DNA of 46,871 bases, taken from Fischerella sp. PCC 9431. GTDB lineage: Bacteria > Cyanobacteriota > Cyanobacteriia > Cyanobacteriales > Nostocaceae. This document shows positions 13,861 through 31,579 of the stretch, one piece after another (the stretch's first letter is position 1; each line of letters opens with the position of its first letter). The stretch spans positions 6,649,673 through 6,696,543 of the forward strand of contig NZ_KE650771.1 in the NCBI RefSeq assembly GCF_000447295.1, written 5' to 3'. Made by a program: the position numbers and the translations under genes. Below the pieces are notes generated by a model. That model worked only from the letters and a program-made list of their open reading frames with translations. It was not told where the DNA came from and did not search any database.

Positions 13861-15261
13861 TCAGAACATGACCTTCACAGAATTAGGTTTCGGAAAAATG
13901 GATAAAGTCGAGCTAAGTGGGCGGACATTGAAAGGTAACTTAATAGTGAAAATACTACCTTTACCTAATTCGCTGTGTACATTTAAGCTACCGTGGTGTG
14001 CTTGGACAATAGCTTGTGAAATAGCTAATCCCAATCCAGAACCGCCAGTAGTACGAGAGCGATCGCAATTTACACGATAAAAGCGATCAAGAATTCGTGA
14101 CAACTCTGGTTGAGGAATACCAATCCCTGTATCTTCTATCTCAATTACAGCATGATGGTCACTGCGGTCTAAATAAACACTTACCTTTCCTCCTGATGCT
14201 GTGTATTGAATGGCATTAATAATTAAATTAGAAAACAGTCGATAAAGCTGATCTCCATTACCGACGATATTCACAGAATCTGACACTCGTACTGTTGATG
14301 TTAGTGTTACCCCTGCTGCGATCGCCAATGCGGCAAATTCTTCTATTAAGTCCTCAATAATATCATTTAAACAGCAAATATCACGTCGCACTGATACAGT
14401 TTGACGATCTAGGCGGGTTAGTAGTAATAAATCTGTCACCAGAGTTGTAAGTCGTTGATTCTGACGTTGTATGCTTTGCAGAATCTCCCGTGCTTCTGTT
14501 TCATCTAATTGTGGTAAAAAAAGTGCTGATTCCACAGTTGCTTGGGTTGCAGCTAAAGGTGTTCGCAACTCGTGTGCAGCATCTGCTGTAAATTGCTGAA
14601 TTTGTCTGTAAGATTTATAAATGGGTTGCATGGCTAATCCTGCAAGCCACCAACTAGCAAGACCAACTAGACCTATAACAATTGGTGAACCCAATACTAA
14701 AGTGAGTTTCACTGCATCTAAATAACTATTAAAGTCTTCCAAACTTCGCCCGACTTGGATATACCCCCAATCATCATTGTTTTGAGTATGCAGTGTCAAA
14801 GAAATCTGGTGGTAAAGCTTACCTTTGCTGTCTTTTAAAGTCTGCCATAACTCCTTGTTAAACTCAAATGACAACCCTTTTGGATTAGAACCAGCTATAG
14901 CAAACAAACGTCCAGAATTGTCAAAAAAACGTACATAGTAATGACCTTGATGAATTGCGCTCAGAGTATGGCGTCGTAAATTTGATGGTTCTGGAGTACA
15001 CTTATTTCCTACTACACAGATATTTGGTAGAAGCTCTTGTATTACTGGTTCCAATCGACCAGGTTGCTGTAATTTTAGTTCAATACTATCGTGTAATGTT
15101 CCCGCAACTGATTCTATTTCCCGGTCTAATGTTACCCAATGAGCATGAGCGATCGCTCTGTAGATACCAAAGCCGCATACACTTAAAATCAGTGCTATAA
15201 CAAGGGCGTACCACAGAGCTAAATGCAAGCGTGTTAATTGAAACAGTTTATTCTGGTTCAT
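13861..15261 (-). CDS. rppB: Sensor histidine kinase, RppB/NrsS type
   Basis: 466 residues. TM1 is about 14-36 and TM2 about 186-210, leaving a ~150-residue periplasmic sensor domain. HisKA has the phospho-accepting H230 (DAAHELRTPL). The HATPase shows the N box (NLIINAIQYT, about 345-354), DTGIGIP (377-383) and GGSGLGLAI (407-415). Sequence style (AIAHAHWVTLDREIESVAGTLHDSI) matches cyanobacterial RppB, relatives of which sense nickel or redox state. Its start overlaps the end of the response-regulator gene by 14 bp, so the two are cotranscribed. Within a copper-type island it probably senses a periplasmic metal ion; the exact ion is not shown. Confidence 0.93.
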   Translation of the reverse strand: MNQNKLFQLTRLHLALWYALVIALILSVCGFGIYRAIAHAHWVTLDREIESVAGTLHDSIELKLQQPGRLEPVIQELLPNICVVGNKCTPEPSNLRRHTLSAIHQGHYYVRFFDNSGRLFAIAGSNPKGLSFEFNKELWQTLKDSKGKLYHQISLTLHTQNNDDWGYIQVGRSLEDFNSYLDAVKLTLVLGSPIVIGLVGLASWWLAGLAMQPIYKSYRQIQQFTADAAHELRTPLAATQATVESALFLPQLDETEAREILQSIQRQNQRLTTLVTDLLLLTRLDRQTVSVRRDICCLNDIIEDLIEEFAALAIAAGVTLTSTVRVSDSVNIVGNGDQLYRLFSNLIINAIQYTASGGKVSVYLDRSDHHAVIEIEDTGIGIPQPELSRILDRFYRVNCDRSRTTGGSGLGLAISQAIVQAHHGSLNVHSELGKGSIFTIKLPFNVRPLSSTLSIFPKPNSVKVMF

Positions 15262-15952
15262 CTGTCAGATTGAGACGATATCCCATACCATGCAAAGTTT
15301 CAATCACATTCCCACAACCACTGTTAACTAGTTTGCGACGCAACAAACGTATTTGAGCTGCTACTACATTACTAATAGGTTCTGCATTAATTTCCCAAAG
15401 CTGATTACGAAGTTGTTCAGTAGTAATGATTTGGTTTGGATGTTTCATAAAATATTCTAGGAGCTGGAATTCTTTATTAGTCAGAGAAATTTTTTGTTTA
15501 TTTCCTCCAGCATTTTGATTGACAACTATATTATTGCCGTAATCCAAAGTCAGCTTACCCACCGTTAATTCCTGTGGCTGAAATTGAGGCGATCGCCTCT
15601 GCAAAGCACGCAAACGTGCTAATAATTCTGCCATTCCAAATGGCTTCACCAAATAGTCATCTGCACCTGCATCTAAACCAGCAACTTTATCTTCCATATT
15701 ATCTTTTGCTGTCAGCATCAACACAGGTAGAGGATTTTTGTGGTAACGTAGTCGCTTACACAATTCTAATCCTGATATTCCTGGTAGCATCCAATCGAAA
15801 ATAGCTAGTGTGTATTGTGTCCAGCTATTTTCCAAATATGCCCATGCATCGTTACCATCAACTACCCAATCAATCAAGTATTTCTGTTGGGTAAGAGTTC
15901 GCTTAATTGCAGTACCTAAATCTGGTTCATCCTCAACTAGTAAAACTCTCAT
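15248..15952 (-). CDS. rppA: OmpR-family response regulator, RppA/NrsR type
   Basis: 234 residues. The receiver domain (1-118) has the acidic pocket E7/D8, phospho-acceptor D53 (IFDWMLPG), T81 and K103 (LVKPFG). The winged-helix DNA-binding domain (about 125-230) includes LTNKEFQLLEYF and the recognition region VVAAQIRLLRRKL. It is the cytosolic partner of the adjacent kinase. Its ATG overlaps the stop of the lipoprotein gene (ATGA), giving the operon lipoprotein-rppA-rppB. As an OmpR/PhoB-type protein it is expected to bind short direct repeats about 11 bp apart. Four such repeats occur upstream of metal genes in this window, including this operon. Confidence 0.94.
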   Translation of the reverse strand: MRVLLVEDEPDLGTAIKRTLTQQKYLIDWVVDGNDAWAYLENSWTQYTLAIFDWMLPGISGLELCKRLRYHKNPLPVLMLTAKDNMEDKVAGLDAGADDYLVKPFGMAELLARLRALQRRSPQFQPQELTVGKLTLDYGNNIVVNQNAGGNKQKISLTNKEFQLLEYFMKHPNQIITTEQLRNQLWEINAEPISNVVAAQIRLLRRKLVNSGCGNVIETLHGMGYRLNLTDEPE

Positions 15953-16896
15953 TGTACATCTACCCAGAAATCAGCAGTAATTATTTTGCCATTTCTATTG
16001 AACTGTCCCCACATTTTATACTTTCCAGGTTTCGGAAAACTAGTCATAAAATGAATTTCATCAGGTGGAGTATTTTTCATCGCATGAGCATGGATATAAT
16101 CTGCTTGTGTTAATGGCGATGACTGCTTGAGGATAACTAAATGTCCTCTTTCTCCTAAATAAGGTTTTAAATCTGTAGGTGGTTGATTACTTACAGTATC
16201 TTGTAAATTGAAAATTACATGAATTTCTTGTCCCGCTTTGATTGTGGGCTGAGATAATTTCAAATTAACTTTAGTGTTACCAAATGTTTTATTAGTAGCT
16301 AAATCAATTTTGGGTGTAGTTGGCGATCGCCCTATAACTTGCGCTTTTAGCACCGAAACTTGTTCTGCTTTTCCGGCTACTTTATAATCACTGAAAAGAG
16401 TGTATCCGCTAGGATAAGGGAAATCAGTTTGAACTTCAAAACGTCCATTACCTTTATATGTAGGATGAATATGTTGAAAAGATTGGAGATCATCACTAAC
16501 AACAATTAAATGCATTAATTGTTCTTGGAACGTATCAAAATTAGCAATTGGTTTACCTGCTTTGTCTTTAATATTAAATGCTAACAAAACAGGAATTTTA
16601 GGAATAATTTTGCTGGATGTTTTAAGTTCCACAATTGCGTTTGCAGGTTCTAAACTGGAATGACCAGAATGCTCATTGTGGTCATTTTCCATATTGTGAC
16701 CGTCATGAGAGTTTTTCTGAGTTTCTGATGTTTGAGAATCACCCATATTGTGACCTGTGTGGGGATTTGCATCTGCAATATTATTTGTATTAGAAATTGA
16801 TATTTCGCTTGTTTGAGAAGATTTTACTTGGGAGGCGCAAGCTTGGGTGAGAACAAGACTTGAAGTGATAGCTAATGCAGTAAAAATTCGCTTCAT
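15949..16896 (-). CDS. His-rich periplasmic lipoprotein, metal-binding
   Basis: 315 residues. Lipoprotein signal with lipobox LTQAC (Cys about 20). Residues 45-85 hold about nine His in HxxHNM-type clusters (HTGHNM, HDGHNM, HNEHSGHSS), a plausible copper or nickel buffer. The rest is two beta-sandwich-like domains with HLIVVSDDLQSFQHIHP and GHLVILKQSSPLTQADYIHAHA, which resemble His-rich YtkA/FixH-like periplasmic domains. First gene of the operon with rppA and rppB, so it may present the metal to the sensor. The assignment of metal is inference. Confidence 0.75.
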   Translation of the reverse strand: MKRIFTALAITSSLVLTQACASQVKSSQTSEISISNTNNIADANPHTGHNMGDSQTSETQKNSHDGHNMENDHNEHSGHSSLEPANAIVELKTSSKIIPKIPVLLAFNIKDKAGKPIANFDTFQEQLMHLIVVSDDLQSFQHIHPTYKGNGRFEVQTDFPYPSGYTLFSDYKVAGKAEQVSVLKAQVIGRSPTTPKIDLATNKTFGNTKVNLKLSQPTIKAGQEIHVIFNLQDTVSNQPPTDLKPYLGERGHLVILKQSSPLTQADYIHAHAMKNTPPDEIHFMTSFPKPGKYKMWGQFNRNGKIITADFWVDVQ

Positions 16897-16974
16897 GTGG
16901 TTATATTTCTAATTGTAAAATAAAAATATTTACTGGATGAACTTCATGATTGATCATTAGTTCCGTAATAGACA

Positions 16975-16992
16975 ATGAAGTTAGGATAAAAT
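16975..16992 (+). promoter_or_regulatory. Putative RppA operator A
   Basis: ATGAAGT-tagg-ATAAAAT, the most diverged copy of the ATGAAAT-N4-ATGAAAT direct repeat. It lies 79 bp upstream of the lipoprotein-rppA-rppB operon and would give autoregulation. Confidence 0.5.
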
Positions 16993-17100
16993 CCTCAAAT
17001 ATCAGAAAATCACTCCCGATGAATCATAAAAAAGTGAAATTACACTAAATCCACGCAAATTATCAGTCATTTTTACTGCCAAGATAATAAACTGCCCTAG

Positions 17101-17610
17101 TTAGCGATTAAAATTAAAACGCCCAGTTGCTTTTTTGCCTTGAATATCTGCGGTAATTCTCACTTGATACTGACCAGATGCTTGTTCACTCAGCAAAGCA
17201 GTATAGTGTTTATCATTAGGATCGTAAGTAAAAGGAACTGTCTTTTGTTTTCCATCAGGTAGCTGAACTTGAGATGTTACTTTTGCATTAGCTACTGTTT
17301 CATGATTGTCACCTTTTAGCAGGTATAAATCCATGTGAGTTGCACTTGCTTCTTTCTCAGGAACAAATTCTAGATGATAAGTTCCCGTCTCGACAACCTG
17401 ACCACCTTTGGATGCACCATGTTCGTTATTTGTTTTCGCAGCAGGTGAAGCAGAAGCAGTTGGCGATCCAGAACCAGAGTTAGAGGTTACTGAAGTATTG
17501 TCTGTACTAGCAGTTTGGTTGCTGTTATTACAAGCACCTAAAAAAACTAGCCCAACACTTGCTAAAAGTAAAAAACCGAGATTTAGATATCGCATTAAAT
17601 AATTTTTCAT
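17101..17610 (-). CDS. Small exported lipoprotein of the metal island
   Basis: 169 residues. Signal segment YLNLGFLLLASVGLVFLGAC ends in a lipobox (LGAC). A Ser/Thr/Ala-rich linker (30-60) leads to a beta-rich domain (GGQVVETGTYHLEFVPEKEA...YQVRITADIQGKK), which looks like an immunoglobulin-like or FixH/YtkA-type periplasmic domain. Few His or Met, so it is more likely a structural or accessory factor than a metal store. It stands alone as a transcription unit, with operator B 204 bp upstream. Function unproven. Confidence 0.7.
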   Translation of the reverse strand: MKNYLMRYLNLGFLLLASVGLVFLGACNNSNQTASTDNTSVTSNSGSGSPTASASPAAKTNNEHGASKGGQVVETGTYHLEFVPEKEASATHMDLYLLKGDNHETVANAKVTSQVQLPDGKQKTVPFTYDPNDKHYTALLSEQASGQYQVRITADIQGKKATGRFNFNR

Positions 17611-17813
17611 ATGAAAAATGTAATTGTCATTTAAGTAGGGTTAAACGCAGTATTTGGCAAATAAAACCGGAAAACTATTGCTTATCTTAATTTTCATTAG
17701 AACTTATGTATTTATATATTTATAAATAATCCTCATGTTGACTAACTATTTTATACAAATATGTTGGATTTTATCAGCAAATTTAGTGACAATATCAAGT
17801 ATTACAAATCAAA

Positions 17814-17831
17814 ATGAAATTGAGATGAAAT
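17814..17831 (+). promoter_or_regulatory. Putative RppA operator B
   Basis: ATGAAAT-tgag-ATGAAAT, a perfect 7-bp direct repeat at 11-bp period. It lies between the oxidase gene and the small lipoprotein gene, upstream of the latter. Confidence 0.6.
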
Positions 17832-17910
17832 TTATCAAACAGGTAGATTAGCCAGGGAATTGACAGAGGTTTCAATTATTTGACACACAGAAGCTGTTTT
17901 ACAAATATAG

Positions 17911-19389
17911 TCATCCTTGAATTGCCAGTGTCCCCATCATCCCCAAATCTTCATGATCAAGAATATGACAATGATAAACAGTTTTACCCGCAAAATCTCG
18001 GAAAGGAATGCGAATGCGGACTGTTTCTCCTCTGGGTACTAAAACTGTATCTTTCCAAGCGGGATAGGGTTCAGGTTGACCATTGCGACTAATGACTTGA
18101 AAATGATTAACGTGGAGATGGAAGGGATGATCCATCACGCCTGTATTGATTATCTCCCAGTCTTCTACTGTGTTTAATTTGACTTGGGTATCAATGCGAT
18201 TATTCTGGTAGGGCTGACCGTTAATTAGAAAGACCATACCCATACCAGGAGCCATACCATGATTAAGTTCAAAGCGACGCACTTGCTTTGGTTTGGGTAA
18301 AGCTGGTATTACAGATAGTTTTTTAGGTAAGGAAGCGGGTTTTACAGCAGAACCGTAATTTATCGTTGCTAAAACTCTAGGTGTGTCCTCATTTCTGGAC
18401 ATCATACCCGTTCTGCCCATCATACCTCCGCCGCCCATCATGCCCATTCCCATCGCACCGCGATCGTAAGGTAAATTGAGCAAGCGGTATTTTCCTGGTT
18501 TTTGATCTGCTTTAATCAAAACTTCTGCTCGTTGTCCTGGTGTCAATAGCAATTCGCTAATTTCTACAGGTTCGGTTAATGCACCTCCTTCAGTCGCAAT
18601 CAAGTAAAAAAGATGATTTTCCAAGGACAACCGATAAAAGCGGGAAGTGGAAGCATTGAGAATTCGCCATCGTACCATTCCTTTAGCCGGAAGTGAAAAA
18701 GTGGGGTTAGGATCGCCGTTAATGGTAATCACATCTCCTTCACGTCCGGTCATAATTGACATATGTGCTGAAGACATCAGCCTTCCTTCACCATCAAGAG
18801 CAAAATCTTGCAGCACCAAAAATTCTTCTTTAGCGGCTTTAATTTCGGGAATTTCGTCTAATTCTCCCCGCATTATAAACAAACCAGCCAATCCCCCAAA
18901 CAATTGTTCCGCTACAAAGCCGTGGCGATGGGGATGATACCAAAACGTCCCAGCCGGATGATTAGAAGGAATAGTAAACTCGTAGTTTAAACTTTCTCCT
19001 GGCTCAATGCTTAAAAAGACATTATCAGCATTACCTGTAGGGGGAATATGTAGTCCGTGGTAATGCAGGTTCGTTGCTTGAGAGAGGTTGTTAGTAAAAT
19101 GAATGCGGACGGTATCTCCTGGTTTAGCTTCTAGACGTGGCGCGGGTATTTGTCCGTTGTAAGTTAGTAAATATGCTTGCTTGTCCCCCAACTTTACAGC
19201 ACGGTTACTAGCTTCGAGGTTAAGCTCTAATAATCCATTATTACTTTTATGTAACTTAGGCAAATCAATTGCTGGTTTTGCTGATAACTGAGAAGAACTA
19301 ACTCTTTCCCACATCCAACTAGCAGCCACAGCCGTTCCAGCACCAGCCGCAGCTAAAGTAATAAATTGACGACGATTTATCTTTTTCAT
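17911..19389 (-). CDS. Multicopper oxidase, CueO/CopA type, Tat-exported
   Basis: 492 residues. Twin-arginine signal (NRRQFITLAAAG, 5-16). The four copper-ligand clusters are HYHGLHIP (109-116), WYHPHRHG (150-157), HPFHLHVNHF (about 425-434) and YHCHILDHEDLGMM (about 475-488, with the type 1 Cys and axial Met). A Met/Gly-rich insert GMGMMGGGGMMGRTGMM (about 315-331) resembles the Met-rich segment of CueO, used for Cu(I) capture. It would oxidise periplasmic Cu(I) to less toxic Cu(II). It follows the DUF411 gene by 54 bp, probably in one transcript controlled by operator C. Confidence 0.93.
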   Translation of the reverse strand: MKKINRRQFITLAAAGAGTAVAASWMWERVSSSQLSAKPAIDLPKLHKSNNGLLELNLEASNRAVKLGDKQAYLLTYNGQIPAPRLEAKPGDTVRIHFTNNLSQATNLHYHGLHIPPTGNADNVFLSIEPGESLNYEFTIPSNHPAGTFWYHPHRHGFVAEQLFGGLAGLFIMRGELDEIPEIKAAKEEFLVLQDFALDGEGRLMSSAHMSIMTGREGDVITINGDPNPTFSLPAKGMVRWRILNASTSRFYRLSLENHLFYLIATEGGALTEPVEISELLLTPGQRAEVLIKADQKPGKYRLLNLPYDRGAMGMGMMGGGGMMGRTGMMSRNEDTPRVLATINYGSAVKPASLPKKLSVIPALPKPKQVRRFELNHGMAPGMGMVFLINGQPYQNNRIDTQVKLNTVEDWEIINTGVMDHPFHLHVNHFQVISRNGQPEPYPAWKDTVLVPRGETVRIRIPFRDFAGKTVYHCHILDHEDLGMMGTLAIQG

Positions 19390-19443
19390 AATTCATGATT
19401 TGTAATGATTCTAAATTTTTTACTCTTCACTTTTTTCTCAAAA

Positions 19444-20052
19444 TTAGTAATTTTGATACTCTTTAAAAACTTCGACTTTACCTTTTTTATCAAACGCGAC
19501 AATTGCAAATGGCTGTTTTCTATTGCCTGATTCCATCCCTGGTGTTCCTAAAGGCATTCCCGGCACAGCTAAACCTGTAAACTTGGGTTTTTGTTGAAGA
19601 AAATGTTTAATATCGTCGGCGGGTATGTGTCCTTCCATCACATAGCCGTTAATAATTGCCGTGTGACATGATGCTAAATCTTGAGGCAAGTTGTACTTTT
19701 GTTTAATTGCCTCCATCTCATCAGTTTTGATATCTTCTTTAATTTTAAACCCATGTTTTTGCATATGTTCAATCCAAGCTCCACAACAACCACAAGACGG
19801 ACTGCGATAAACTGTGATTTCTCGCTTGCCTGAGTAAGATTCTGTTTCTTTGTCCCAGATACTTGTGTTAGAAATTAATTGAAAATTGCTGAGTACTGTT
19901 TGTGAATTATTGCTCGAATTTACATTATTTTCTTTGCTTAATACAGCTACTGTTGCATAAGTAGTAGCTACAACTCCAGTAGTAATAATGGCTGCTACTA
20001 AGGGGCGGTAAATTTTATTTATCCAGTCAAATAAATTTTTTCTCATAGTCAA
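19444..20052 (-). CDS. DUF411 metal-binding exported protein
   Basis: 202 residues. One N-terminal TM/signal segment (about 15-35), then the DUF411 domain with YRSPSCGCCGAWIEHMQKHG (CGCC metal-site core), CHTAIINGYVMEGHIPADDI and GLAVPGMPLGTPGME. Such proteins occur beside copper and silver resistance genes and are thought to carry soft metals in the periplasm. It is first in the transcript with the multicopper oxidase. Operator C lies 201 bp upstream. The family name is sure; the biochemical role is not. Confidence 0.88.
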   Translation of the reverse strand: MTMRKNLFDWINKIYRPLVAAIITTGVVATTYATVAVLSKENNVNSSNNSQTVLSNFQLISNTSIWDKETESYSGKREITVYRSPSCGCCGAWIEHMQKHGFKIKEDIKTDEMEAIKQKYNLPQDLASCHTAIINGYVMEGHIPADDIKHFLQQKPKFTGLAVPGMPLGTPGMESGNRKQPFAIVAFDKKGKVEVFKEYQNY

Positions 20053-20252
20053 AATCTCAAACTAAATTTTTATGACTAATAATGACTTGATGTTGCTCAT
20101 GGTTCCAAACCCGTTCTTCTAGTTTAGACTCTCTATCTAACTGGAGAGTCAACTAAAAAGATTGCTAATTATTTTAATATCTGTCACTGAGTACCATAAC
20201 GCACAATTTTTAAATTCATTTGAATATAAAAAAATATGAATAGCATCTCAAA

Positions 20253-20270
20253 ATGAAATTAAAATGAAAT
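20253..20270 (+). promoter_or_regulatory. Putative RppA operator C (divergent)
   Basis: ATGAAAT-taaa-ATGAAAT in the 340-bp divergent region. It is 201 bp before the DUF411-oxidase genes on the minus strand and 125 bp before the truncated Cys-rich gene on the plus strand, so it could serve both. Confidence 0.6.
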
Positions 20271-20394
20271 TTAACATAAATACAAATACTAAAAATAAAA
20301 ATTTTCTTTTATTCCCATAGTTAGAAGCACTATTTTGAAATATTTTTCTATTCTTCTAATTACGAAAGTACAAATCACAAAAATAGGGGTGTAT

Positions 20395-20523
20395 ATGCTT
20401 TTAGTTCATAAAGAATATCAATCTAGCTTTGATGTTGCGATGTATTGTGCAGTAGAATGCGAACACTGCGCTGAAGCCTGTATTGGTCATGCGGAAATGG
20501 CACCCGGACAGCTTACTGGCTAA
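20395..20523 (+). pseudogene. Csp-type (DUF326) copper-storage protein, 3'-truncated
   Basis: 42 residues from ATG 20395 (MLLVHKEYQSSFDVAMYC). The Cys pattern AVECEHCAEACIG matches the first helices of four-helix-bundle copper-storage proteins, which line the bundle core with Cys to hold many Cu(I). The normal protein is about 110 residues; here it ends at a TAA after GQLTG because the DNA jumps into a P-type ATPase gene in another frame. The remaining helix-and-a-half should not fold into a bundle. Confidence 0.75.
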
Positions 20524-21695
20524 CTATAATTGCGATCGCTGCTGGTAGTCTCACTTTCTTTGTTTGGCTGTTTTTTAGCGATCTACTGTTTGCTGTCAAC
20601 CGTAGCGTTACCGTATTAGTTATTACTTGTCCGCACGCCCTCGGTTTAGCGATTCCTTTGGTAATTGCTAATTCTACTAGTTTAGCTGCGAAAAATGGCA
20701 TTTTAGTGAGAAACCGAGATGCTTTAGAACGGGCTAAAGATATTAAAAATATGGCGTTCGATAAAACTGGAACTTTGACAGAAGGACGCTTTGCAGTTCA
20801 AAGAGTTGTTAGCGACTCTATTGCAGAAGAACAAGCCTTAGCAATAGCCGCCGCTTTGGAAACTGCTTCCGAACACCCCTTAGCGAAAGCAGTGGTGGAA
20901 GCTGCCGAACGCCGTCAACTGAGTTTACCCCAAATGTCTGATTTTAAGACAGTGACGGGTCGTGGAGTTGAGGGTAAAGTTAACGGTCAAACTTACCGAA
21001 TAGGTCGTCCGGAATGGGTGGAAGAACAAAACCTGAATTTACCATCATCTCTACGTCAAGGACTAAATACAGCCGATGAACGCGGAGAAAGTGCAGTAGT
21101 TTTAATGACTTCTAAAAGTGCTGTTGCCGTAATTTCAATGGCTGACCAAGTGCGGGAACGGGCGCGAGAAGCGGTAAATAAGTTAAAGGAAAAAAATATT
21201 CAAGTAATCATGATTACCGGAGACGCGGAAGCTGTCGCCCGGACTGTTGCTGAGGATTTAGGTATCGATCGCTATTATGGTCGGGTTTTGCCAGAAGACA
21301 AAGTTAGTATTATCAAACAATTGAAACAAGAAGGTGCAACGGCTTTTGTTGGCGATGGGATTAACGATGCAGCTGCACTTTTAGAAGCTAATATTGGGAT
21401 TGCGATCGGTGCAGGGACGAATGTGGCGATCGAATCAGCTGATTTGGTATTGATTGAAGATGATCCTTTAGATGCGGTGAAAGCTTTAAATTTAGCACAA
21501 AAAACCTACGGCAAAATGATTCAAAATTTGGCATGGGCAACAGGTTACAACGTAATTGCTATTCCCTTGGCTGCTGGTGTGCTTTATACTTGGGGATTTT
21601 TGCTATCGCCAGCTGTGGGGGCGTTGTTAATGAGTTTGTCAACGGTGATTGTGGCAATTAATGCTGTGATGTTGCGACGGGCGAAGTTGGCTTAG
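20475..21695 (+). pseudogene. CopB-like P1B-type metal ATPase, 5'-truncated
   Basis: The frame is open from 20475 with no ATG and starts in the middle of a transmembrane segment (AYWLTIIAIAAGSLTFF). It retains the intramembrane TCPHALGLAIP motif (CPH, as in CopB-type copper/silver exporters), DKTGTLTEG phosphorylation site, SEHPLAKA, MITGDA and GDGINDAAAL, plus the last two TM helices. The N-terminal His-rich region, first four TM helices and actuator domain are missing, deleted into the Csp gene. Expression from the in-frame TTG at 20658 would begin after CPH, so pumping is not possible. Confidence 0.85.
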
Positions 21696-21735
21696 TTTTA
21701 GACGCATCAGGTAGCAGAGTCTAAGGAGAAACACA

Positions 21736-23130
21736 ATGGCACTTGTTTTAGAACAAATTAATGCAGAAGGACTTGCTCAGTTATCTTACTTAATTGGTGA
21801 TGATCAGGCAGGTGTAGTGGCTGTAGTTGATCCACAGCGCGATGCGGATGTATATCTACAAATGGCCAGAAAGCGTGGTTTGAGAATTACTCATATCATT
21901 GAAACTCATATCCATGCGGATTTTGTTTCTGGTTCCCACGAACTCAAAGCCAGGACGGGTGCTACAGTTTACGGCGGAAAAAGCGATGATTACCAGTTCG
22001 ATTTGCACTCCTTAAAAGAGGGTGATGAGTTACATTTGGGTAAAATTACGCTTCGTGTCTTGCAAACACCCGGACATACACCAGAACACATTTGTTTGCA
22101 GATATGTGATGCCCAGCAAGGTAAAGAACCATTTGGTTTATTCACTGGCGATACATTGTTTAATTTAGATGTGGGAAGACCTGATTTGCGAGGTACTGGT
22201 ACAGAGAAAAAACAAGCTGCACAACTTTATCATTCTCTGTTTGACAAGCTTTTACCTTTAGGAGACAGAATCGAAATTTATCCCTGTCACGGTGCAGGTT
22301 CTGCCTGCGGACGTTCGATAGGAGACAGAAAACAAAGCACTATCGGTAACGAACGAATCTTTAGTCAAGCTTTTAAAGAAAGAACGGAGTCAGAGTTTGT
22401 TGAGTGGATTTTAACCGGAATGCCCGAACCACCTACCTATTATTCTTATCTGAAAAAGGTGAATGCTAAAGGTGCAAAAGTTTTGGGATGCGTACCGACT
22501 TTACCACCACTATCGGTTAAAGAATTCCAACAACAAATGCAGGATAAGAATACGGTAATTATTGATACCCGTTCAATTCTAGCTTTTGGTGGCGGACATA
22601 TTCGGGGTGCAATTAATATTGCTTTAACCTCATCATTCCTAGCTTGGGTTGGTTGGATGATTGATCCGGATAAAACTATTTTGCTAGTAGTGGAGAGCGA
22701 TCGCGATGTATCTTTGGTAGTAGAACATTTGTTCCGTATCGGTTACGACAACTTAGCTGGTTATTTACACGATGGCATGACAAGTTGGCAAAATGCCGGA
22801 TTACCTTTGCAACAAGTAGGTGAGTGGACTGTCAAAGAGTTAAATCAACACAAAGAAGATTTAAATTTAACAGTCTTGGATGTCCGCAGTGATGGTGAAT
22901 ATCAAAATGGTTACGTGCCAGGAGCCAAGCATATTTACCTGCCTCATCTAGAACAACATTTAGATCAATTGGATAAAAATCAAATAATTGTTACTTACTG
23001 CGGTAGTGGCTATCGAGCTTCAATCGCCGCCAGTATTTTGCAAAAATACGGTTTTGAAAACGTTATCAATATACCTGGTTCGTGGATTGCTTGGAAGAAT
23101 GAAAATTTGCCAGTACAACAACCAGGGTAA
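21736..23130 (+). CDS. MBL-fold persulfide dioxygenase-like protein with two rhodanese domains
   Basis: 464 residues. The metallo-beta-lactamase domain (1-250) has H58-x-H60-x-D62 (THIHADFVSG), H114 (TPGHTPEH), D139 (TGDTLF) and H185 (CHGAGSACG), the iron site of ETHE1/Blh/CstB-type persulfide dioxygenases. Rhodanese 1 (about 262-355) lacks the active Cys (LLVVESDRD). Rhodanese 2 (about 365-460) has it in VTYCGSGYRAS. It would oxidise glutathione persulfide or move sulfane sulfur. It lies 40 bp after the ATPase remnant, so it was likely the end of that operon; AAGGAG precedes the ATG. Sulfur chemistry genes often travel with soft-metal resistance. Confidence 0.88.
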   Translation: MALVLEQINAEGLAQLSYLIGDDQAGVVAVVDPQRDADVYLQMARKRGLRITHIIETHIHADFVSGSHELKARTGATVYGGKSDDYQFDLHSLKEGDELHLGKITLRVLQTPGHTPEHICLQICDAQQGKEPFGLFTGDTLFNLDVGRPDLRGTGTEKKQAAQLYHSLFDKLLPLGDRIEIYPCHGAGSACGRSIGDRKQSTIGNERIFSQAFKERTESEFVEWILTGMPEPPTYYSYLKKVNAKGAKVLGCVPTLPPLSVKEFQQQMQDKNTVIIDTRSILAFGGGHIRGAINIALTSSFLAWVGWMIDPDKTILLVVESDRDVSLVVEHLFRIGYDNLAGYLHDGMTSWQNAGLPLQQVGEWTVKELNQHKEDLNLTVLDVRSDGEYQNGYVPGAKHIYLPHLEQHLDQLDKNQIIVTYCGSGYRASIAASILQKYGFENVINIPGSWIAWKNENLPVQQPG

Positions 23131-23184
23131 ATTCTGAGGATTCAAAGAGAAACCTTAGTATAAACAGATAAGACGATCGCTACA

Positions 23185-23300
23185 CTATAGACCTTGGCGA
23201 TCGCCAATACACTGCTGAAAAAATTTTATTGGCAGTTAATGGAAAAGCTACTAAATCAGATATTCCCGGAATTGGATTTAAAAAGGGAGCAAAAGAATGA
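23185..23300 (+). pseudogene. Possible 3' fragment of an exported/metal-related gene
   Basis: An open frame without a start, ending TGA at 23298-23300, reads IDLGDRQYTAEKILLAVNG and then KATKSDIPGIGFKKGAKE. Its end overlaps the ATG of the Met-rich gene (AATGAT). It may be the tail of a deleted gene. Low certainty. Confidence 0.3.
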
Positions 23301-23707
23301 TTACAAGAAATACAACTGTTGCTAAATATGCTGTCACTATTATTACTCTATTAGGATTGAGTGCTGTACCATCAATTGCTCAGACAAAACCTTCTACATC
23401 AAGCTTGCTCAAGCAAAGCTCAGAAATGAACTTACAACAAATGTATCAAAATCACCGAGAAATGATGTTACATATGGGACAGATGCAGCAAATGATGGGA
23501 CAAATGCAAATCAATATGGGTCAAATGCAACAGAGAATGTCTCAAATGACACCTGAACAAATGCAGCAAATGATGCAAAGAATGACTCCACAGCAAAGAT
23601 ATCAGCACTATCAAAAAATGATGATGCAAATGCAAGAAATTATGAAAAACATGCAGCAGATGAACCAGATGATGAGAACTGATAGTCAAATGCCAAAAAA
23701 ATACTAA
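23297..23707 (+). CDS. Exported Met/Gln-rich protein, possible copper buffer
   Basis: 136 residues. Signal peptide (about 1-29, cleaved near SIAQT). The mature part is almost only Met, Gln and a few His, in repeats such as QMQQMMGQMQ and MQQRMSQMTPEQMQQMM; about one residue in four is Met. Met-rich periplasmic segments bind Cu(I) or Ag(I) through thioethers (CopK-, PcoE-like logic), so a copper sponge in the periplasm is plausible. It faces the cusA gene end to end. No named family is recognised. The low-complexity DNA also yields a His-rich antisense frame, which is an artefact. Confidence 0.75.
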   Translation: MITRNTTVAKYAVTIITLLGLSAVPSIAQTKPSTSSLLKQSSEMNLQQMYQNHREMMLHMGQMQQMMGQMQINMGQMQQRMSQMTPEQMQQMMQRMTPQQRYQHYQKMMMQMQEIMKNMQQMNQMMRTDSQMPKKY

Positions 23708-23788
23708 CGCTAATTTTTGGACAAGATAGCGATCGCTTGCAATTAAGTTATGAGACTACAAGCAAAAGGGGCAAAATTTTACTAAAAA

Positions 23789-26700
23789 TTACCACTCCAA
23801 TACTGCTCCAACTCCCTTTTCTTGTGCAACACTAGACATTTGTTTTGGCATTAACAACTTACCGAACTTAGCGTATAAAGCAGGTAACACTATTAATGTT
23901 AAAGCAGTAGAGGTAAACAATCCCCCCAGTACCACCACAGCTAGAGGTTGCAAAATTTCCTTACCTGCACCCGTACCAATGACTAAAGGAACCATTCCTA
24001 AAGCGGAGGTCAAAGCTGTCATTAAAATTGCCACCAAACGTTCCATCGACCCCTCAAAAATTACTTCCTTTAAAGTCATTTCCTGTGCCAGCTTATTGTT
24101 GTAATTATCTACAAGTAGTAAACCGTTGCGTGTCGCTACGCCAAAAAGGGTAATAAAACCGACTAATGAAGCTACAGAAATTATCCCACCTCCCAAAGCA
24201 ATGGAAAATATTCCGCCTACTACAGCTAGAGGTAAATTAATCATAATCATCAGCATCGCCGCGACAGATTTCACAGCAAAGTACATTAATATACCAATAA
24301 CAACAATTGCCAGTCCTCCGAATACTAGTAAATTATTAGTAGCTCGTTGTTCTGATTCAAACTGACCGCCGTATTGAATAAAGTAACCCGTGGGCAATTG
24401 TACTGAATTTTTGACTTGGGCTTGAATTTCATCTACTACAGAACCTAAATCTCGTCCTGATACGTTTGCAGACACAACAATCAGGCGAGAAACATTTTCG
24501 CGGTTAATTGTATTGGGACCAGTTCCATAATCTATACTGGCGACTTGGGCGAGAGGAATTTTTTGACCTGTGGGAGTATCTATTAATAAATTACGAATAA
24601 TATCTAAATTATTACGAGCATCTTCTTTTAACCAAACTACCAAATCAAACAGTTGTTGGTCTTTGAGAACCTGAGATACTACTCTTCCATTGAAAGCAGT
24701 TTCTACCATCTGGGTTAGATTACCTACAGTTAAACCATAACGAGCTGCTGCTTCGCGGTTAAATTGAATTTGCAATTGTTTAATCGGGACTTGGGGTTCG
24801 AGTTGTAAGTCTACGAGTCCGGGAATATTACTTACTGCTGCTTGAACTTCTGTCCCTAAACGGCGTAGTTCTGCCAAATCGGGGCCGAAAATTTTGATGG
24901 CGATCGCACTTCTTACCCCAGATAACACTTCATCCATGCGGTGAGAAATAAATCCGCCAATATTAGGTGCAGCACCAGGTATCTTCGCAAATTCGGCTCG
25001 CAGTTTTTCAATACTTCCTTTGCGATCTTTCAATCCCTCTGCACTTAGTTCTACATCCAAATGTCCCAAGTTAACCCCGCCTGCATCTGCATCCCCAGGC
25101 GCGCGTCCGGATCTTAACTGCACTGATTTAAATCGTTTATCGTTTTTAAGAGCATCCTGCATAGCAAATCCAACTTGATTGGTTGCTTCAAGAGAACTTC
25201 CTGGATACAACAGGACTGCATTGACTAAAGATGGTTCTTGAAACTCCGGCAAAAATACTCGCCCTAAACTTGGCAGAATCACTAAAGATGTTACTAAAGA
25301 TGCTGTTGCAACGGCTAAAATAATTGTCGGGAAACGCATCGAAAAATTGAGAATCGGTCGATAAAGTCGCTGTGATAATGCACTTACCCAAGTATCATCC
25401 GCAGGTAATCGTCTGTTCGCTAACAAAATCGCACATAAAGCAGGAGAAAGAGTCATTGCTACAAAAGTAGAAGCAAAAATTGACACCAAGTAAGCAACAC
25501 CCATCGGTGCAAATATCCGACCTTCCACACCTGTCAGTGAGAAAATCGGCGCAAAGACAACAGCAATAATTACGGTAGAAAAAATCACACTAACTCTGAC
25601 TTCCACAGAGGTATCGTATACAACTTTAAAAGGATTTACAGGAGTTCCCGCTAGCTGATTCTTTCGCAAACCCCGGTAAGCGTTTTCCATATCAACGATA
25701 GAATCATCCACTACCGAACCAATGGCGACAGCTAAACCTCCCAGTGTCATAGTATTGATACCCTGACCAAACAAGCCCAAAATCATCATCCCAATCAACA
25801 CTGATAAAGGAATGGCGCTCAGGGTAATTACAGCAGTGCGCCAGTTCATCAAAAACATCAGCAGGATAATCGAAACGATGATGATCCCATCACGTAAAGA
25901 ACTGGTCACATTTTCAATTGCGGCATCGATAAAATTATTTTGGCGGAAGGTTTCTATCACTTTCACATCTTTGGGCAAACCAGCTTTGACTTCCTCCATT
26001 GCTCTTTCAATGGCTCTGGTGACAGTCGGGGTATCATATTGGGGTTGCTTGTTAACCATCACTGCGATCGCCCTTTCACCGTTTAAACTGCCATCACCAC
26101 GTTTGAGGGCTGCACCAATTCGCACATCTGCTACATCTTTGAGTAAAATCGGCGTACCATTGCGAGCTGTAATTGCCGAATTTCCCAATTGCTCAATTGA
26201 ATCTATGCGTCCTACTCCCCGAATAACTATTTCTTGATCGGGATTAATTAAAAAGCCACCCGCAGCATTGACATTTGCACCTCTGGCTGCTGCTGTTACT
26301 TCTTCTAAAGTGACATTCAAAGCCTTGAGTTTAGCTGGATCGACTAAAACCTGATATTGGCGGACATCACCGCCATAGGCAATTACCTGAGAAACACCCG
26401 GTACAGCTAACAGTCGGTTAGTAATATCTCTGTCTACCAAACGCCGCACTTCCATCATGGGAGTTGTTTCGGTAGTTAAAGCATATTGCAGAACTGTACC
26501 AATAGGAGAAGAAATCGGAGAAATTTGCGGATTTTCCACGCCCTCTGGTAATTTTTGCACAGCCTGTTGCAATCGTTCTGTTACTAATTGCCGCGCTTGA
26601 TAAACATTAGTACCCCATTTAAAAATCACCTTCACAACAGAAATACCAACTGCCGAGGAAGAACGCACCGTTTCTACTCCCGGCGTACCATTGACTGCGC

Positions 26701-26911
26701 TTTCAATTGGCAAGGTAATGAGAGATTCGACTTCTTCGGGAGCGAGTCCTGGCGCTTCAGTTTGAATTTCTACCTGGGGTGGGGCAAAATTAGGAAAAAC
26801 ATCTAAAGGCATTTGGGTGAGGTTATACACACCCAAAAAAGTCACAACAATAGCTCCCAGCACTACTATCCAGCGTTGGAAAATCGACCACTTGAGAATA
26901 GCATTTAACAT
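23789..26911 (-). CDS. cusA: RND heavy-metal efflux pump, CusA/CzcA type
   Basis: 1040 residues, 12 TM helices with large periplasmic loops after TM1 and TM7. It begins MLNAILKWSIFQRWIVVLGA, followed by FPNFAPPQVEIQTEAPGLAP typical of the heavy-metal (HME) branch. The TM4 proton-relay region GGLAVAIGSVVDDSIVDMEN has the conserved acidic residues. The inner-membrane trimer works with a periplasmic adaptor and outer-membrane channel to move Cu(I)/Ag(I) or divalent cations out. The adaptor gene is 160 bp upstream. No outer-membrane partner is in the window. Metal choice (Cus versus Czc) is uncertain; the copper genes nearby favour Cus. Confidence 0.9.
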   Translation of the reverse strand: MLNAILKWSIFQRWIVVLGAIVVTFLGVYNLTQMPLDVFPNFAPPQVEIQTEAPGLAPEEVESLITLPIESAVNGTPGVETVRSSSAVGISVVKVIFKWGTNVYQARQLVTERLQQAVQKLPEGVENPQISPISSPIGTVLQYALTTETTPMMEVRRLVDRDITNRLLAVPGVSQVIAYGGDVRQYQVLVDPAKLKALNVTLEEVTAAARGANVNAAGGFLINPDQEIVIRGVGRIDSIEQLGNSAITARNGTPILLKDVADVRIGAALKRGDGSLNGERAIAVMVNKQPQYDTPTVTRAIERAMEEVKAGLPKDVKVIETFRQNNFIDAAIENVTSSLRDGIIIVSIILLMFLMNWRTAVITLSAIPLSVLIGMMILGLFGQGINTMTLGGLAVAIGSVVDDSIVDMENAYRGLRKNQLAGTPVNPFKVVYDTSVEVRVSVIFSTVIIAVVFAPIFSLTGVEGRIFAPMGVAYLVSIFASTFVAMTLSPALCAILLANRRLPADDTWVSALSQRLYRPILNFSMRFPTIILAVATASLVTSLVILPSLGRVFLPEFQEPSLVNAVLLYPGSSLEATNQVGFAMQDALKNDKRFKSVQLRSGRAPGDADAGGVNLGHLDVELSAEGLKDRKGSIEKLRAEFAKIPGAAPNIGGFISHRMDEVLSGVRSAIAIKIFGPDLAELRRLGTEVQAAVSNIPGLVDLQLEPQVPIKQLQIQFNREAAARYGLTVGNLTQMVETAFNGRVVSQVLKDQQLFDLVVWLKEDARNNLDIIRNLLIDTPTGQKIPLAQVASIDYGTGPNTINRENVSRLIVVSANVSGRDLGSVVDEIQAQVKNSVQLPTGYFIQYGGQFESEQRATNNLLVFGGLAIVVIGILMYFAVKSVAAMLMIMINLPLAVVGGIFSIALGGGIISVASLVGFITLFGVATRNGLLLVDNYNNKLAQEMTLKEVIFEGSMERLVAILMTALTSALGMVPLVIGTGAGKEILQPLAVVVLGGLFTSTALTLIVLPALYAKFGKLLMPKQMSSVAQEKGVGAVLEW

Positions 26912-26965
26912 ATTTTTTTCAATTTCAGATCGTGCGTGCTGCTTTAAAGTATGGGTAATTAATTT

Positions 26966-27068
26966 ATACCAATTCGTAATTCGTAATTCATAATTCGTAA
27001 TTACGGAAGTTAGGCTTGAACTGGGTTTCAGGATTTGAATGTGTTGCCGGATTTTAGAGAATTGGTAT
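26966..27068. repeat. Small element with 7-bp tandem repeats (STRR)
   Basis: Four tandem AATTCGT units (26971-26998, one with AATTCAT) sit at the left of a ~100-bp segment bounded by ATACCAATTC (26966-26975) and its exact complement (27059-27068). Heptanucleotide arrays of this kind are common in heterocystous cyanobacteria. It fills the cusB-cusA gap. Confidence 0.65.
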
Positions 27069-27071
27069 TAG

Positions 27072-28766
27072 TTAAGATTTGGGAAAATGAGGATCTTCAC
27101 GCTCATTGATATCTGTAGTCGAAGCAGATAAAGCTGGCGATTGAGAATTATTGTGATAATTTTCTGTTTGATCAACAGGTGTATCTAACTCTAAGGAATT
27201 ACCTGCTAGCACTAGCTGTTGTGATTTGTTGTGACGACCATTCCAGAAAGCACCAGCCACAAAAGCTAAAACAGCAGTCACAGCTACTCCCCCCACACCC
27301 AAAAGCCATAGCAAGTACGGTGTTTGTGTCTGTGCTGTTGTCTGTACAGGAGTTTCGCTATGTTCATCTTGTTTCGCTTTGCCACCTCCTCGCAGAGATT
27401 GAGCATACAACTGAGGCGCGCGCTGAGTAACTATTAAATCTCCTTCAAATAACCCAGTCTTGACTGCAACCATATCCCCAGAGGTTTGCCCTAAAGTAAC
27501 TTCCACAGGTTGATAAGCATTGCCATTTTGGATGTAAACTTGTTTCTTCCCATTCACATCAACTACAGCTGAGTTGGGAATAGCCAAACTAGGTGCTGAG
27601 GTTTGGTCTGTCAGGACTTCTAGCTCTGCAAACATCCCTGGTTTAAGGATTCCGCCTGAGTTATTTATTTGAGCTTTTACAGGTACTACCCGCGTTTCGC
27701 CTGCTATCAAAGACCCAATTACAGTAATTTTTCCGGTAAAAGTGCGGTTAGGTACAGAAGCAACTTTAACCCTTACCCGTTGACCTGTTCTTACCTGTCC
27801 TAAATCTTTTTCATAAATATTAGCTGTAGCAAAAACTTGACTATCATTGATAATCGTCATTAGCTTGCCACCAGCATCCTCAAATGTTTGACCGATTGTC
27901 ACTTCTCTGTCTGCAACTTTACCTGTAATAGGCGCAGTCACCGTTACTAGTCCCTTGACATTACCTCTGTTACCCAATTGTTGCAGCCTAGTTTGATAAG
28001 TGGTATTGCTGAGTTGAATACGTCTTTTTGCAACGTCAACTGCGGCTTGAGCGCGTTTGAGTTGATTTTCTGCCTCAATCACGTCTCGACGACTTTTGGC
28101 TTTGGTGAGTTCGGCTTTAGCTTCTGCTAGTTGAGTTTGTGATTCTAAAGCATTGCGACGGGGTAAAGCACCAGCATCAGCTAACTGCTTGTCTTTGTCG
28201 TACTTTTCTTGGGCAAAGTCAACTTGACTCTGTGCTTGGGCGATTTCAGAGGCAGCTATTTGTTGATATCTTTGGTAGTTTTGTTGAGCCAGTCTTAAGT
28301 CAGCTTGTGCTTGCTGTAAATCAGATTGAGCTTGTGCTAATTTTTCTTGAGATTCAACGCGCAATGTTACCAAGTCTGGACTAGTAACAACGGCAACGGG
28401 TTGACCTTTTGTCACATTTGCGCCAGGTTCCACCAGCAATTCAACTACTTTCGCCCCAGAAATTGGGGTAGTCACTTCCACTTTTTGGCTAGGTAGAGTT
28501 TCAATTTGTCCAGTGGTTTGAATTTCTACAGCTAACTGCTGATGCTTAACTGGCTCGACTTTAATCCCCAACCGTTGAGCAATTTGGGCATCAACTTGAA
28601 TTGAGTTAGTGGTACTATTAGCTTGATTTTCTTGATGAAATTCGTCTCCGTGTCCAGCGTGTGCTAAGACAATTGCGGGAGTTGTCAGTAAAAGCAGGCT
28701 TGCTAGTGTACTAGAAACACAATGAATTAATGCCGGTCGTTGAGTACGCACAGAGTTAAGCATCAC
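27072..28766 (-). CDS. cusB: RND periplasmic adaptor, CusB/CzcB type
   Basis: 564 residues. Signal peptide (about 1-36), then a His-rich stretch HAGHGDEFHQENQ. Barrel-sandwich halves (QIETLPSQKVEVTTPISGAK; GLVTVTAPITGKVADREVTI) flank a long helical hairpin (about 130-260, many QA/AQ heptads), followed by beta-barrel and membrane-proximal domains. An unusual tail has a TM helix (YLLWLLGVGGVAVTAVLAFV, about 484-503) and a ~60-residue soluble end, beyond the usual ~400-residue adaptor. It links the pump to an outer-membrane channel and may hand over the metal. First gene of cusBA, with operator D 100 bp upstream. Confidence 0.88.
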   Translation of the reverse strand: MMLNSVRTQRPALIHCVSSTLASLLLLTTPAIVLAHAGHGDEFHQENQANSTTNSIQVDAQIAQRLGIKVEPVKHQQLAVEIQTTGQIETLPSQKVEVTTPISGAKVVELLVEPGANVTKGQPVAVVTSPDLVTLRVESQEKLAQAQSDLQQAQADLRLAQQNYQRYQQIAASEIAQAQSQVDFAQEKYDKDKQLADAGALPRRNALESQTQLAEAKAELTKAKSRRDVIEAENQLKRAQAAVDVAKRRIQLSNTTYQTRLQQLGNRGNVKGLVTVTAPITGKVADREVTIGQTFEDAGGKLMTIINDSQVFATANIYEKDLGQVRTGQRVRVKVASVPNRTFTGKITVIGSLIAGETRVVPVKAQINNSGGILKPGMFAELEVLTDQTSAPSLAIPNSAVVDVNGKKQVYIQNGNAYQPVEVTLGQTSGDMVAVKTGLFEGDLIVTQRAPQLYAQSLRGGGKAKQDEHSETPVQTTAQTQTPYLLWLLGVGGVAVTAVLAFVAGAFWNGRHNKSQQLVLAGNSLELDTPVDQTENYHNNSQSPALSASTTDINEREDPHFPKS

Positions 28767-28865
28767 GCTTCAAATTTCCTTAAATACTGAAAGTCAGGAG
28801 TTGCGATCGCGTATTGGTTTTAATGAGCGAGGAATAGTACACATCTCCTACTTTTGCATTAAGAA

Positions 28866-28883
28866 ATGAAATTAGGATGAAAT
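28866..28883 (+). promoter_or_regulatory. Putative RppA operator D
   Basis: ATGAAAT-tagg-ATGAAAT, a perfect 7-bp direct repeat at 11-bp period, 100 bp upstream of the cusB start codon. The group II intron ends 66 bp further upstream. Confidence 0.6.
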
Positions 28884-31354: not shown

Positions 31355-31579
31355 TCCCCTCAGAACGGCTCGTGACAGTTATCCCATCAAGCCGCTCAAG
31401 CCTTCAGCAATTTAGAACGATTCTCACCATAGTGGAGTTGTTGGTGGCAGGCTTGATGGAGATGAACAAGGTTTTCCTCATTATCATTGCCGCCATCTTT
31501 GACTTGTACAATATGGTGGGTGTGCAATGGTTCTCCATTAAACAGGGGTTCTCTACATACTGGACACTGCCAGTTTTGG
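31355..31579 (-). pseudogene. HNH-domain remnant of another group II intron ORF
   Basis: Encodes QNWQCPVCREPLFNGEPLHT followed by HHIVQVKDGGNDNEENLVHL and HQACHQQLH, the C-terminal HNH module of a second intron protein (stop at 31396-31398). After it, GAGCCGTTCTGAGGGG looks like a domain V with its middle deleted. The right side is cut by the IS at 31580. So intron 1 sits in the ruin of a different intron. Confidence 0.7.

What the first reader, a model, noticed from the sequence alone, without database searches (positions are those of the whole stretch)
16975..28883. One shared 11-bp-period direct repeat in front of the metal-resistance units: a candidate RppA regulon
ATGAAAT-N4-ATGAAAT occurs perfectly at 17814-17831, 20253-20270 and 28866-28883, and with changes at 16975-16992. 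All four are in intergenic regions upstream of island units: lipoprotein-rppA-rppB, small lipoprotein, DUF411-oxidase and Csp-CopB-MBL (divergent), cusBA. I saw no other copies in the window. OmpR/PhoB-type regulators bind direct repeats about 11 bp apart and the island encodes just one such regulator. The link to RppA is inference.
Basis: partly seen in the sequence, partly recalled or inferred. Interest (0 to 1): 0.85.

Follow-up and report, generated by a model that had tools for sequence, protein, structure and literature searches.

The report
Shared copper-type switch before resistance genes
The repeated DNA word in front of these metal-resistance genes is real and looks like a cyanobacterial copy of a known kind of copper-response switch, set at a fixed distance from a promoter, through which the island's own regulator probably turns on three of its gene groups.

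Summary
ATGAAAT-N4-ATGAAAT occurs exactly three times in the window (17814, 20253, 28866) and five times in the 7.17-Mb genome. On the strand of the genes it is ATTTCAT-N4-ATTTCAT. The same box precedes copM and copBAC on the Synechocystis plasmid pSYSX, whose regulator CopR has a published putative TTCAT-repeat sequence. In 56 of 80 boxes from related regions an extended -10 (TGnnAnnnT) follows at one fixed offset, 10 bp from box end to hexamer, as in PhoB promoters. 105 of 116 genomes with the box hold an RppA/CopR-type response regulator (209 of 388 overall); the window's genome shows one such match. The three exact window boxes carry the -10 block, one lacking its last T; the fourth (16975) is a decayed copy of a box intact in Brasilonema. 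All four point leftward (cusBA, DUF411-oxidase, the two lipoprotein units), not to the rightward unit, whose copB lacks its N-terminal half. Verdict: CopR-type regulon, new member of a known kind. Binding and the metal sensed are untested. 'RppA' is a database label; a review gives Synechocystis RppA a different motif. Side yield: DUF2808 genes are probable targets (13 of 14 annotated, same loci as the training set).

The parts
28866..28882 (-). intact box TTTCATCCTAATTTCAT before cusB-cusA
   Evidence: module score 38.1; 19 of 22 cusB homologue hits in the held loci have a module upstream
28850..28858 (-). extended -10 block TGCAAAAGT; predicted +1 at 28843
   Evidence: rule derived from 80 boxes outside the window
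20253..20269 (-). intact box TTTCATTTTAATTTCAT before DUF411-multicopper oxidase
   Evidence: score 29.3; module also before DUF411 homologues in 5 other genomes
20237..20245 (-). extended -10 block TGCTATTCA (TG and A present, last T missing); predicted +1 at 20230
17814..17830 (-). intact box TTTCATCTCAATTTCAT before the small lipoprotein
   Evidence: score 37.3; found before this gene in only one other genome among the held loci
17798..17806 (-). extended -10 block TGTAATACT; predicted +1 at 17791
16975..16991 (-). decayed box TTTTATCCTAACTTCAT before lipoprotein-rppA-rppB; its -10 block (16959-16967) lacks TG and A
   Evidence: (score 17.9); aligns with the intact box at the same 79-nt distance before the Brasilonema orthologue
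15248..15952 (-). response regulator, RppA/CopR type (NF041734), proposed binder of the boxes
   Evidence: only match at E <= 1e-60 in its genome, 7 of 139 first-look candidates scored
13861..15261 (-). sensor histidine kinase, RppB type (NF041735)
15949..16896 (-). His-rich two-domain lipoprotein, first gene of the regulator operon
17101..17610 (-). small lipoprotein, predicted Ig-like fold resembling P19/FetP/CrdA
19444..20052 (-). DUF411 protein
17911..19389 (-). multicopper oxidase (CueO-like, below the NCBIfam cut-off)
27072..28766 (-). RND periplasmic adaptor (CusB type)
23789..26911 (-). RND permease, CusA/CzcA family

Best explanation
The repeats are operators of a CopR-type copper (or copper/silver) regulon. 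Two TTTCAT half-sites 11 bp apart, about one helix turn, are bound side by side by the phosphorylated island regulator (labelled RppA). The box ends 10 bp before an extended -10, so the bound regulator sits where a -35 element would be and recruits RNA polymerase, as PhoB does. It switches on, leftward, cusBA, DUF411-multicopper oxidase and the small lipoprotein. The copy before lipoprotein-rppA-rppB has decayed, so autoregulation is probably weak here. Shown by sequence: box, spacing, direction, -10 block, conservation, co-occurrence with the regulator. Inferred: that this regulator binds, that it activates, and that copper is the signal.
For: Same box before copM and copBAC of pSYSX; PMC4182526 passage names TTCATN4-5TTCAT as the putative CopR sequence; PMC13421787 passage says CopR binds upstream of and activates copMRS and copBAC. 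Box TTTCATYYTRRTTTCAT: 116 of 388 genomes, 218 sites by my sum of the rows, 5 for the reversed control pattern (my count of the rows); 105 of the 116 have the regulator at E <= 1e-60; box present in 50 of 76 genomes with the closest regulators (E < 1e-99), 54 of 103 intermediate, 1 of 30 remote, 11 of 179 without. Of 150 listed sites, 111 are in genomes with a listed regulator and 60 of these lie within 20 kb of one, where about 0.7% is expected for one regulator in 6 Mb. TGnnAnnnT at one offset in 56 of 80 boxes, background 0.0056 per position. 99 of 112 modules have the next gene on the same strand within 450 nt. Recognition-helix stretch the same in 35 of 36 regulators, pSYSX CopR included. 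PhoB boxes lie 10 bp upstream of the -10 (PMC1906773 passage).
Against: No binding or expression data for this organism. 104 of 209 genomes with the regulator have no exact box, and 51 of the 111 sites above are not within 20 kb of a listed regulator, 34 of them on another contig. The 30 regions were chosen around the regulator and the score matrix was trained on them. Most homologues of the large and the small lipoprotein in the held loci lack the module (6 of 34 hits; 1 other genome). Regulators that I call NrsR-type share the recognition helix, so the helix does not single out one regulator. One of 20 shuffled windows gave a module score of 20.3, above the 17.9 of the 16975 site. The spacing printed for CopR (N4-5) differs from the N6 between TTCATs found in pSYSX and here.
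Confidence: 0.84

Rival explanations
1. The boxes are bound by another OmpR-type regulator of the host (for example RpaB) that recognises 11-bp direct repeats, not by the island's regulator.
For: RpaB-type boxes also have about 11-bp spacing (recalled, no call). First-look candidates for the regulator query number 139 in this genome.
Against: RpaB is present throughout cyanobacteria (recalled), yet genomes without an RppA/CopR-type regulator at E <= 1e-60 hold the box in only 11 of 179 cases, and 60 of 111 sites lie within 20 kb of such a regulator.
Confidence: 0.07
2. The sites belong to an NrsR-type nickel/redox RppA regulon as described for Synechocystis sll0797.
For: NCBI's model labels the protein RppA; PMC4182526 reports the TTCAT repeat also between nrsRS and nrsBACD; two regulators that I take for NrsR-type (from recall and gene context, not tested) share the recognition-helix stretch.
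Against: A review gives that RppA the motif AAMAWCTCYYWCCCC, at chance level in the window. Upstream of the two NrsR-type genes looked at there is no module (best scores 3.2 in L069 and -5.0 in L089), although in L089 a module does lie behind that regulator-kinase pair, before the next RND gene. The window regulator groups closely with neither. DUF411, oxidase and CusBA fit copper or silver better (family knowledge, recalled).
Confidence: 0.08
3. Chance or a dispersed simple repeat (A+T-rich heptamers) that happens to lie between genes.
For: With up to 3 mismatches allowed the window is at chance level.
Against: Exact copies are about 900-fold over the rate elsewhere in the genome; the box is conserved before cusB and DUF411 homologues and keeps its orientation and its distance to a -10 block.
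Confidence: 0.01

Closest known systems
CopR box of Synechocystis (copMRS and copBAC promoters; pSYSX of strain IPPAS B-1465 read here)
   Same: Same two half-sites, same 11-bp period, similar spacers (CCTGA, CTTGG), same place before an RND efflux operon, same extended -10 block; regulator 65% identical with the same recognition-helix stretch.
   Different: Here the boxes also stand before DUF411-multicopper oxidase and a small lipoprotein; the regulator operon starts with a different lipoprotein, not the DUF305 protein CopM, and its own box is decayed.
PhoB/Pho box promoters of Escherichia coli
   Same: Tandem direct repeats with 11-bp period ending 10 bp before the -10 (PMC1906773 passage); regulator of the same family.
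   Different: Other half-site sequence, and a TG extension of the -10 that the passage I saw does not mention for PhoB.
RppA (sll0797, NrsR) regulon of Synechocystis
   Same: Same NCBI family label; PMC4182526 also places a TTCAT repeat between nrsRS and nrsBACD.
   Different: Motif AAMAWCTCYYWCCCC and pigment genes as targets according to a review (PMC13421787 passages); that motif is not enriched here.

Membership tests
CopR-type copper regulon (Synechocystis CopRS) | TTCAT direct repeat in target promoters | tested here: met
   Three intact copies; same layout in the pSYSX copM and copBAC promoters. The printed spacing N4-5 is not met by either; both have N6
CopR-type copper regulon (Synechocystis CopRS) | OmpR/PhoB-family regulator with linked sensor kinase | tested here: met
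   Response_reg + Trans_reg_C and HisKA + HATPase_c; NF041734/NF041735
CopR-type copper regulon (Synechocystis CopRS) | HME-RND efflux operon under the box | tested here: met
   cusB-cusA 100 nt behind the box at 28866
CopR-type copper regulon (Synechocystis CopRS) | Regulator operon under its own box | tested here: inconclusive
   Box at 16975 decayed in both half-sites and in the -10 block
CopR-type copper regulon (Synechocystis CopRS) | Direct binding and copper-dependent induction | not testable with these tools
   Needs footprinting and reporters
CopR-type copper regulon (Synechocystis CopRS) | Regulator in the CopR clade rather than the NrsR clade | tested here: inconclusive
   Midpoint-rooted tree of 36 regulators puts it in a third group with Nostocales plasmid and family-level relatives
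PhoB-like class of activated promoters | Direct repeats ending 10 bp before the -10 | tested here: met
   56 of 80 outside boxes; 3 of 3 intact window boxes carry TG and A, 2 of 3 also the last T
PhoB-like class of activated promoters | Activation by the regulator bound in place of a -35 element | not testable with these tools
   Needs in vitro transcription or reporters
Synechocystis RppA (sll0797) regulon | Motif AAMAWCTCYYWCCCC in target promoters | tested here: not met
   2 matches at 2 mismatches in the window, 1.75 expected by chance

The most novel reading that the evidence does not exclude
Across cyanobacteria one promoter module (TTTCAT-CYTRA-TTTCAT-N7-TGnCAnnCTA) and its RppA/CopR-type regulator go together, often on plasmids, as a portable metal regulon. 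It reaches well beyond efflux: DUF2808 and DUF305 proteins, a cysteine-synthase-like enzyme, CemA-family proteins and outer-membrane porins, several of them without a known function, are wired to it; one Brasilonema plasmid stretch holds 16 boxes. Synechocystis, with two published CopR target operons, would be a reduced case.
Probability: 0.6. Interest if true: 0.6.

Novelty: new member of a known kind. Interest (0 to 1): 0.45.

Why it matters
It turns a hand-spotted repeat into a sharp, testable promoter rule (box, 10 bp, extended -10) for reading the metal regulon of a cyanobacterium from sequence, and it gives a functional lead (metal response) for gene families without known function, above all DUF2808. 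It also warns that the database name RppA covers regulators for which different motifs are in print. For this organism it predicts which island genes are induced together, that autoregulation has decayed, and that the rightward csp-copB remnant is not part of the circuit.

Tried and rejected
Considered and rejected: chance for the three intact sites; the published RppA motif; the rightward copB unit as a target (direction of the box, statistics; truncated ATPase). Searching the own genome with the whole module at up to 3 mismatches gave 89 + 119 matches against 101 + 104 for the reversed control, so it is uninformative at that depth; of the five rows with 0 or 1 mismatch three are the island boxes. 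The copies elsewhere in the genome (L001, L002, L006, L007) score 7.3 to 10.3 with the module matrix, the intact island sites 29.3 to 38.1. Identifying the 42-codon ORF before copB as a Csp remnant failed: no Pfam match up to E 0.1 and no tblastn match of a plasmid Csp at 1e-3. Assigning the regulator to the CopR or NrsR clade by tree was inconclusive. Foldseek with the large lipoprotein gave only generic Ig-like and fibronectin-like matches.

Changed on the way: a first count of modules before homologous genes measured from extrapolated gene starts and gave large lipoprotein 5 of 29, small lipoprotein 1 of 29, DUF411 2 of 29, oxidase 1 of 17. It missed boxes already seen beside DUF411 genes, because those proteins are shorter than the query, so I recounted from the aligned start over all held loci; the report uses. 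My first proximity count left out five listed sites in two genomes with a listed regulator on another contig, and my first split by regulator similarity left one genome (G015) in the wrong class; both were redone on checking, which lowered the shares slightly and changed no conclusion or odds.

The original CopRS paper (Giner-Lamia 2012) was not among the listed results of my searches; I rely on what PMC4182526 and PMC13421787 say of it. Papers: listings for all searches; passages only from PMC4182526, PMC4284471, PMC4335983, PMC13421787, PMC1906773, PMC10957091 and PMC11663576; no whole text read. I did not see the -10 block or the wider regulon in print, but can say so only for the listed results and those passages.
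Full report
What is there. The three exact and one imperfect repeats are at the stated coordinates. Exact copies are rare: five in 7.17 Mb, three of them in this 12 kb (P about 6e-9 from the rate elsewhere). The two copies elsewhere lie at or just before start codons of genes not recognised as metal genes, one with a spacer near the consensus (CTTCA), one not (GTTCA), and neither is followed by the -10 block (module scores 7.3 and 9.2). A near copy at C1:120055 fits the box pattern but not the -10 block either (score 9.0).

What it is. On the strand of the leftward genes the word is A-TTTCAT-N5-TTTCAT. Scanning 24.7 kb of pSYSX of Synechocystis sp. IPPAS B-1465 for two TTCATs 3 to 7 bases apart gave two sites: 51 nt before the DUF305 gene (copM) that precedes rppA, and 42 nt before the annotated start of the RND adaptor. 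They read TTTCATCCTGATTTCAT and TTTCATCTTGGTTTCAT. PMC4182526 (passage) calls TTCATN4-5TTCAT the putative CopR sequence of these promoters; PMC13421787 (passage) says phosphorylated CopR binds upstream of and activates both operons. In the pSYSX DNA the TTCATs are 6 apart (5 if the half-site is TTTCAT), as in the window; I could not check the original paper for the difference.

Distribution. TTTCATYYTRRTTTCAT was found in 116 of 388 genomes of the class, 218 sites by my sum of the rows, against 5 for the reversed pattern (counted from the rows). A relative of the window regulator at E <= 1e-60 was found in 209 of 388. 105 of the 116 box genomes have it (Fisher P 2e-23, not corrected for kinship). 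The box is present in 50 of 76 genomes with the closest regulators, 54 of 103 intermediate, 1 of 30 remote and 11 of 179 without. Of the 150 sites that one search lists (of 218), 111 lie in genomes with a listed regulator, 77 on the same contig and 60 within 20 kb. Against: half of the regulator genomes (104 of 209) show no exact box.

Anatomy. From ten plasmid records and 20 genome regions around regulators I took 100 boxes with perfect half-sites and at most one odd spacer base, 80 after removing near duplicates. The preferred spacer is CYTRA, preceded by A. Counting the first T as 1, there is a second conserved block: T25 G26, A29 and T33, with C28 and C32 preferred. TGnnAnnnT starts at that offset in 56 of 80 boxes and in at most 3 of 80 at any other offset from -40 to +69; the background is 0.0056 per position; 31 of 51 plasmid and 25 of 29 genome boxes carry all of it. 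This reads as an extended -10, CAnnCT with TG, starting 10 bp after the box. PMC1906773 (passage) gives the same 10 bp for PhoB in E. coli. The box then covers about -39 to -23, the place of a -35 element (inference). Of 112 modules scoring 25 or more in these 30 regions, 99 have the next gene on the same strand within 450 nt, 5 face a gene on the other strand, 8 are neither.

The window's four sites. With the matrix from the outside boxes the only window hits of 7 or more are these four: 38.1 (28866), 37.3 (17814), 29.3 (20253) and 17.9 (16975); among 20 shuffles of the window the highest score was 20.3, so 16975 does not stand out by score. The three exact sites have TG and A at the right offset; 20253 lacks the last T; 16975 lacks TG and A. 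The 16975 site aligns with an intact box before the 75%-identical lipoprotein of Brasilonema, at the same 79 nt from the start: a decayed box with a decayed -10. All four face left.

Homologous genes. In the held loci, 19 of 22 CusB hits have a module scoring 20 or more in the 600 nt upstream; DUF411 7 of 32 hits (one the window's own and one site counted twice, so 5 other genomes); large lipoprotein 6 of 34; small lipoprotein 4 of 52 (two the window's own, the other two the same site in one genome); multicopper oxidase 1 of 16; CusA 6 of 67. Random 600-nt one-strand stretches of the same loci have one in 170 of 4800. So cusB is a core target, DUF411 a recurrent one, and the small-lipoprotein box a rare one. 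All but one of the 22 CusB hits lie in regions chosen around the regulator.

Regulator. The window protein scores 415 bits to NF041734 RppA (cut-off 250), the kinase 742 to NF041735 (cut-off 400). It is the only match at E <= 1e-60 in its genome (7 of 139 candidates scored). The stretch SN[VA][VI]AAQ-RL-RR, which I take for the recognition helix by analogy with PhoB (recalled), is present in 35 of 36 regulators, including pSYSX CopR and two that I call NrsR-type from recall and gene context. The tree puts the window protein with regulators from Nostocales plasmids and relatives, apart from both CopR and NrsR-type. NCBI's RppA label covers the pSYSX CopR too, while a review gives Synechocystis RppA another motif, at chance level here.

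Wider regulon. Among 92 first ORFs behind modules, Pfam finds DUF2808 in 22, RND adaptors (HlyD_D23) in 17, DUF305 in 15, response regulators in 14, RND permeases in 6, PLP enzymes in 4, CemA and OprB in 2 each, DUF411 in 1. In the ten annotated plasmid stretches a module of 20 or more lies within about 320 nt upstream of 13 of 14 DUF2808 genes, 4 of 5 DUF305, 9 of 13 regulators, 4 of 7 RND adaptors and 20 of 213 other annotated genes (same loci as the training set; families as annotated, so unlabelled members count as other).

Mechanism and doubts. Best reading: the metal-bound sensor phosphorylates the regulator, two molecules bind the repeat, and polymerase is recruited to the extended -10. 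Binding, activation and the metal are inferred. Copper or silver is the better guess from CusBA, the CueO-like oxidase and DUF411 (family knowledge), and from the small lipoprotein, whose predicted beta domain (pLDDT above 90; whole model mean 77.5) has as its best PDB match a DUF4426 protein and next the copper proteins FetP/P19/FtrA and the copper determinant CrdA (E 1.9e-4 to 1e-3 for the first ten rows, TM by target 0.5 to 0.7), a modest match.

Noticed in passing
20395-21695: The rightward unit behind the divergent region looks broken: a 42-codon ORF (20395-20523) is followed by an ATPase reading frame that aligns only with residues 353-745 of a 764-residue relative, so the N-terminal half is missing. 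The short ORF could not be confirmed as a Csp.
   Followed up: partly
29033-32727: A group II intron reverse transcriptase split over two overlapping ORFs (29033-30217, 30169-30753) and a DDE transposase (31609-32727) sit upstream of the cusB box.
   Followed up: no
L062-L070 (plasmid records): DUF2808 genes near rppA carry the same promoter module in 13 of 14 annotated cases, a lead to a metal response for a family of unknown function.
   Followed up: partly
17101-17610: Small lipoprotein family with homologues in 119 of 388 genomes, in several (for example G191, G037, G304) directly upstream of rppA by the coordinates; predicted fold like P19/FetP/CrdA copper proteins.
   Followed up: partly
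15949-16896: Lipoprotein with a His-rich, low-confidence N-terminus and two beta-rich parts, no Pfam or NCBIfam match.
   Followed up: partly
L064 6453-29956: The Brasilonema plasmid pBOCT1 stretch carries 16 copies of TTCAT-N6-TTCAT in about 23.5 kb, several in a row before one gene.
   Followed up: no
L069 33117-33245: Divergent regulator/RND pair with only a weak variant of the box (score 3.2), whose -10-like block lies one base further away by eye: possibly how NrsR-type and CopR-type promoters differ.
   Followed up: no
L061 11337 and 14044: Published CopR spacing (TTCATN4-5TTCAT, PMC4182526 passage) does not match the N6 found between the TTCATs in pSYSX.
   Followed up: partly
L006 1501-1518 (C1:120055): A box-like copy elsewhere in the genome without the -10 block at the right distance; probably not a target.
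   Followed up: partly
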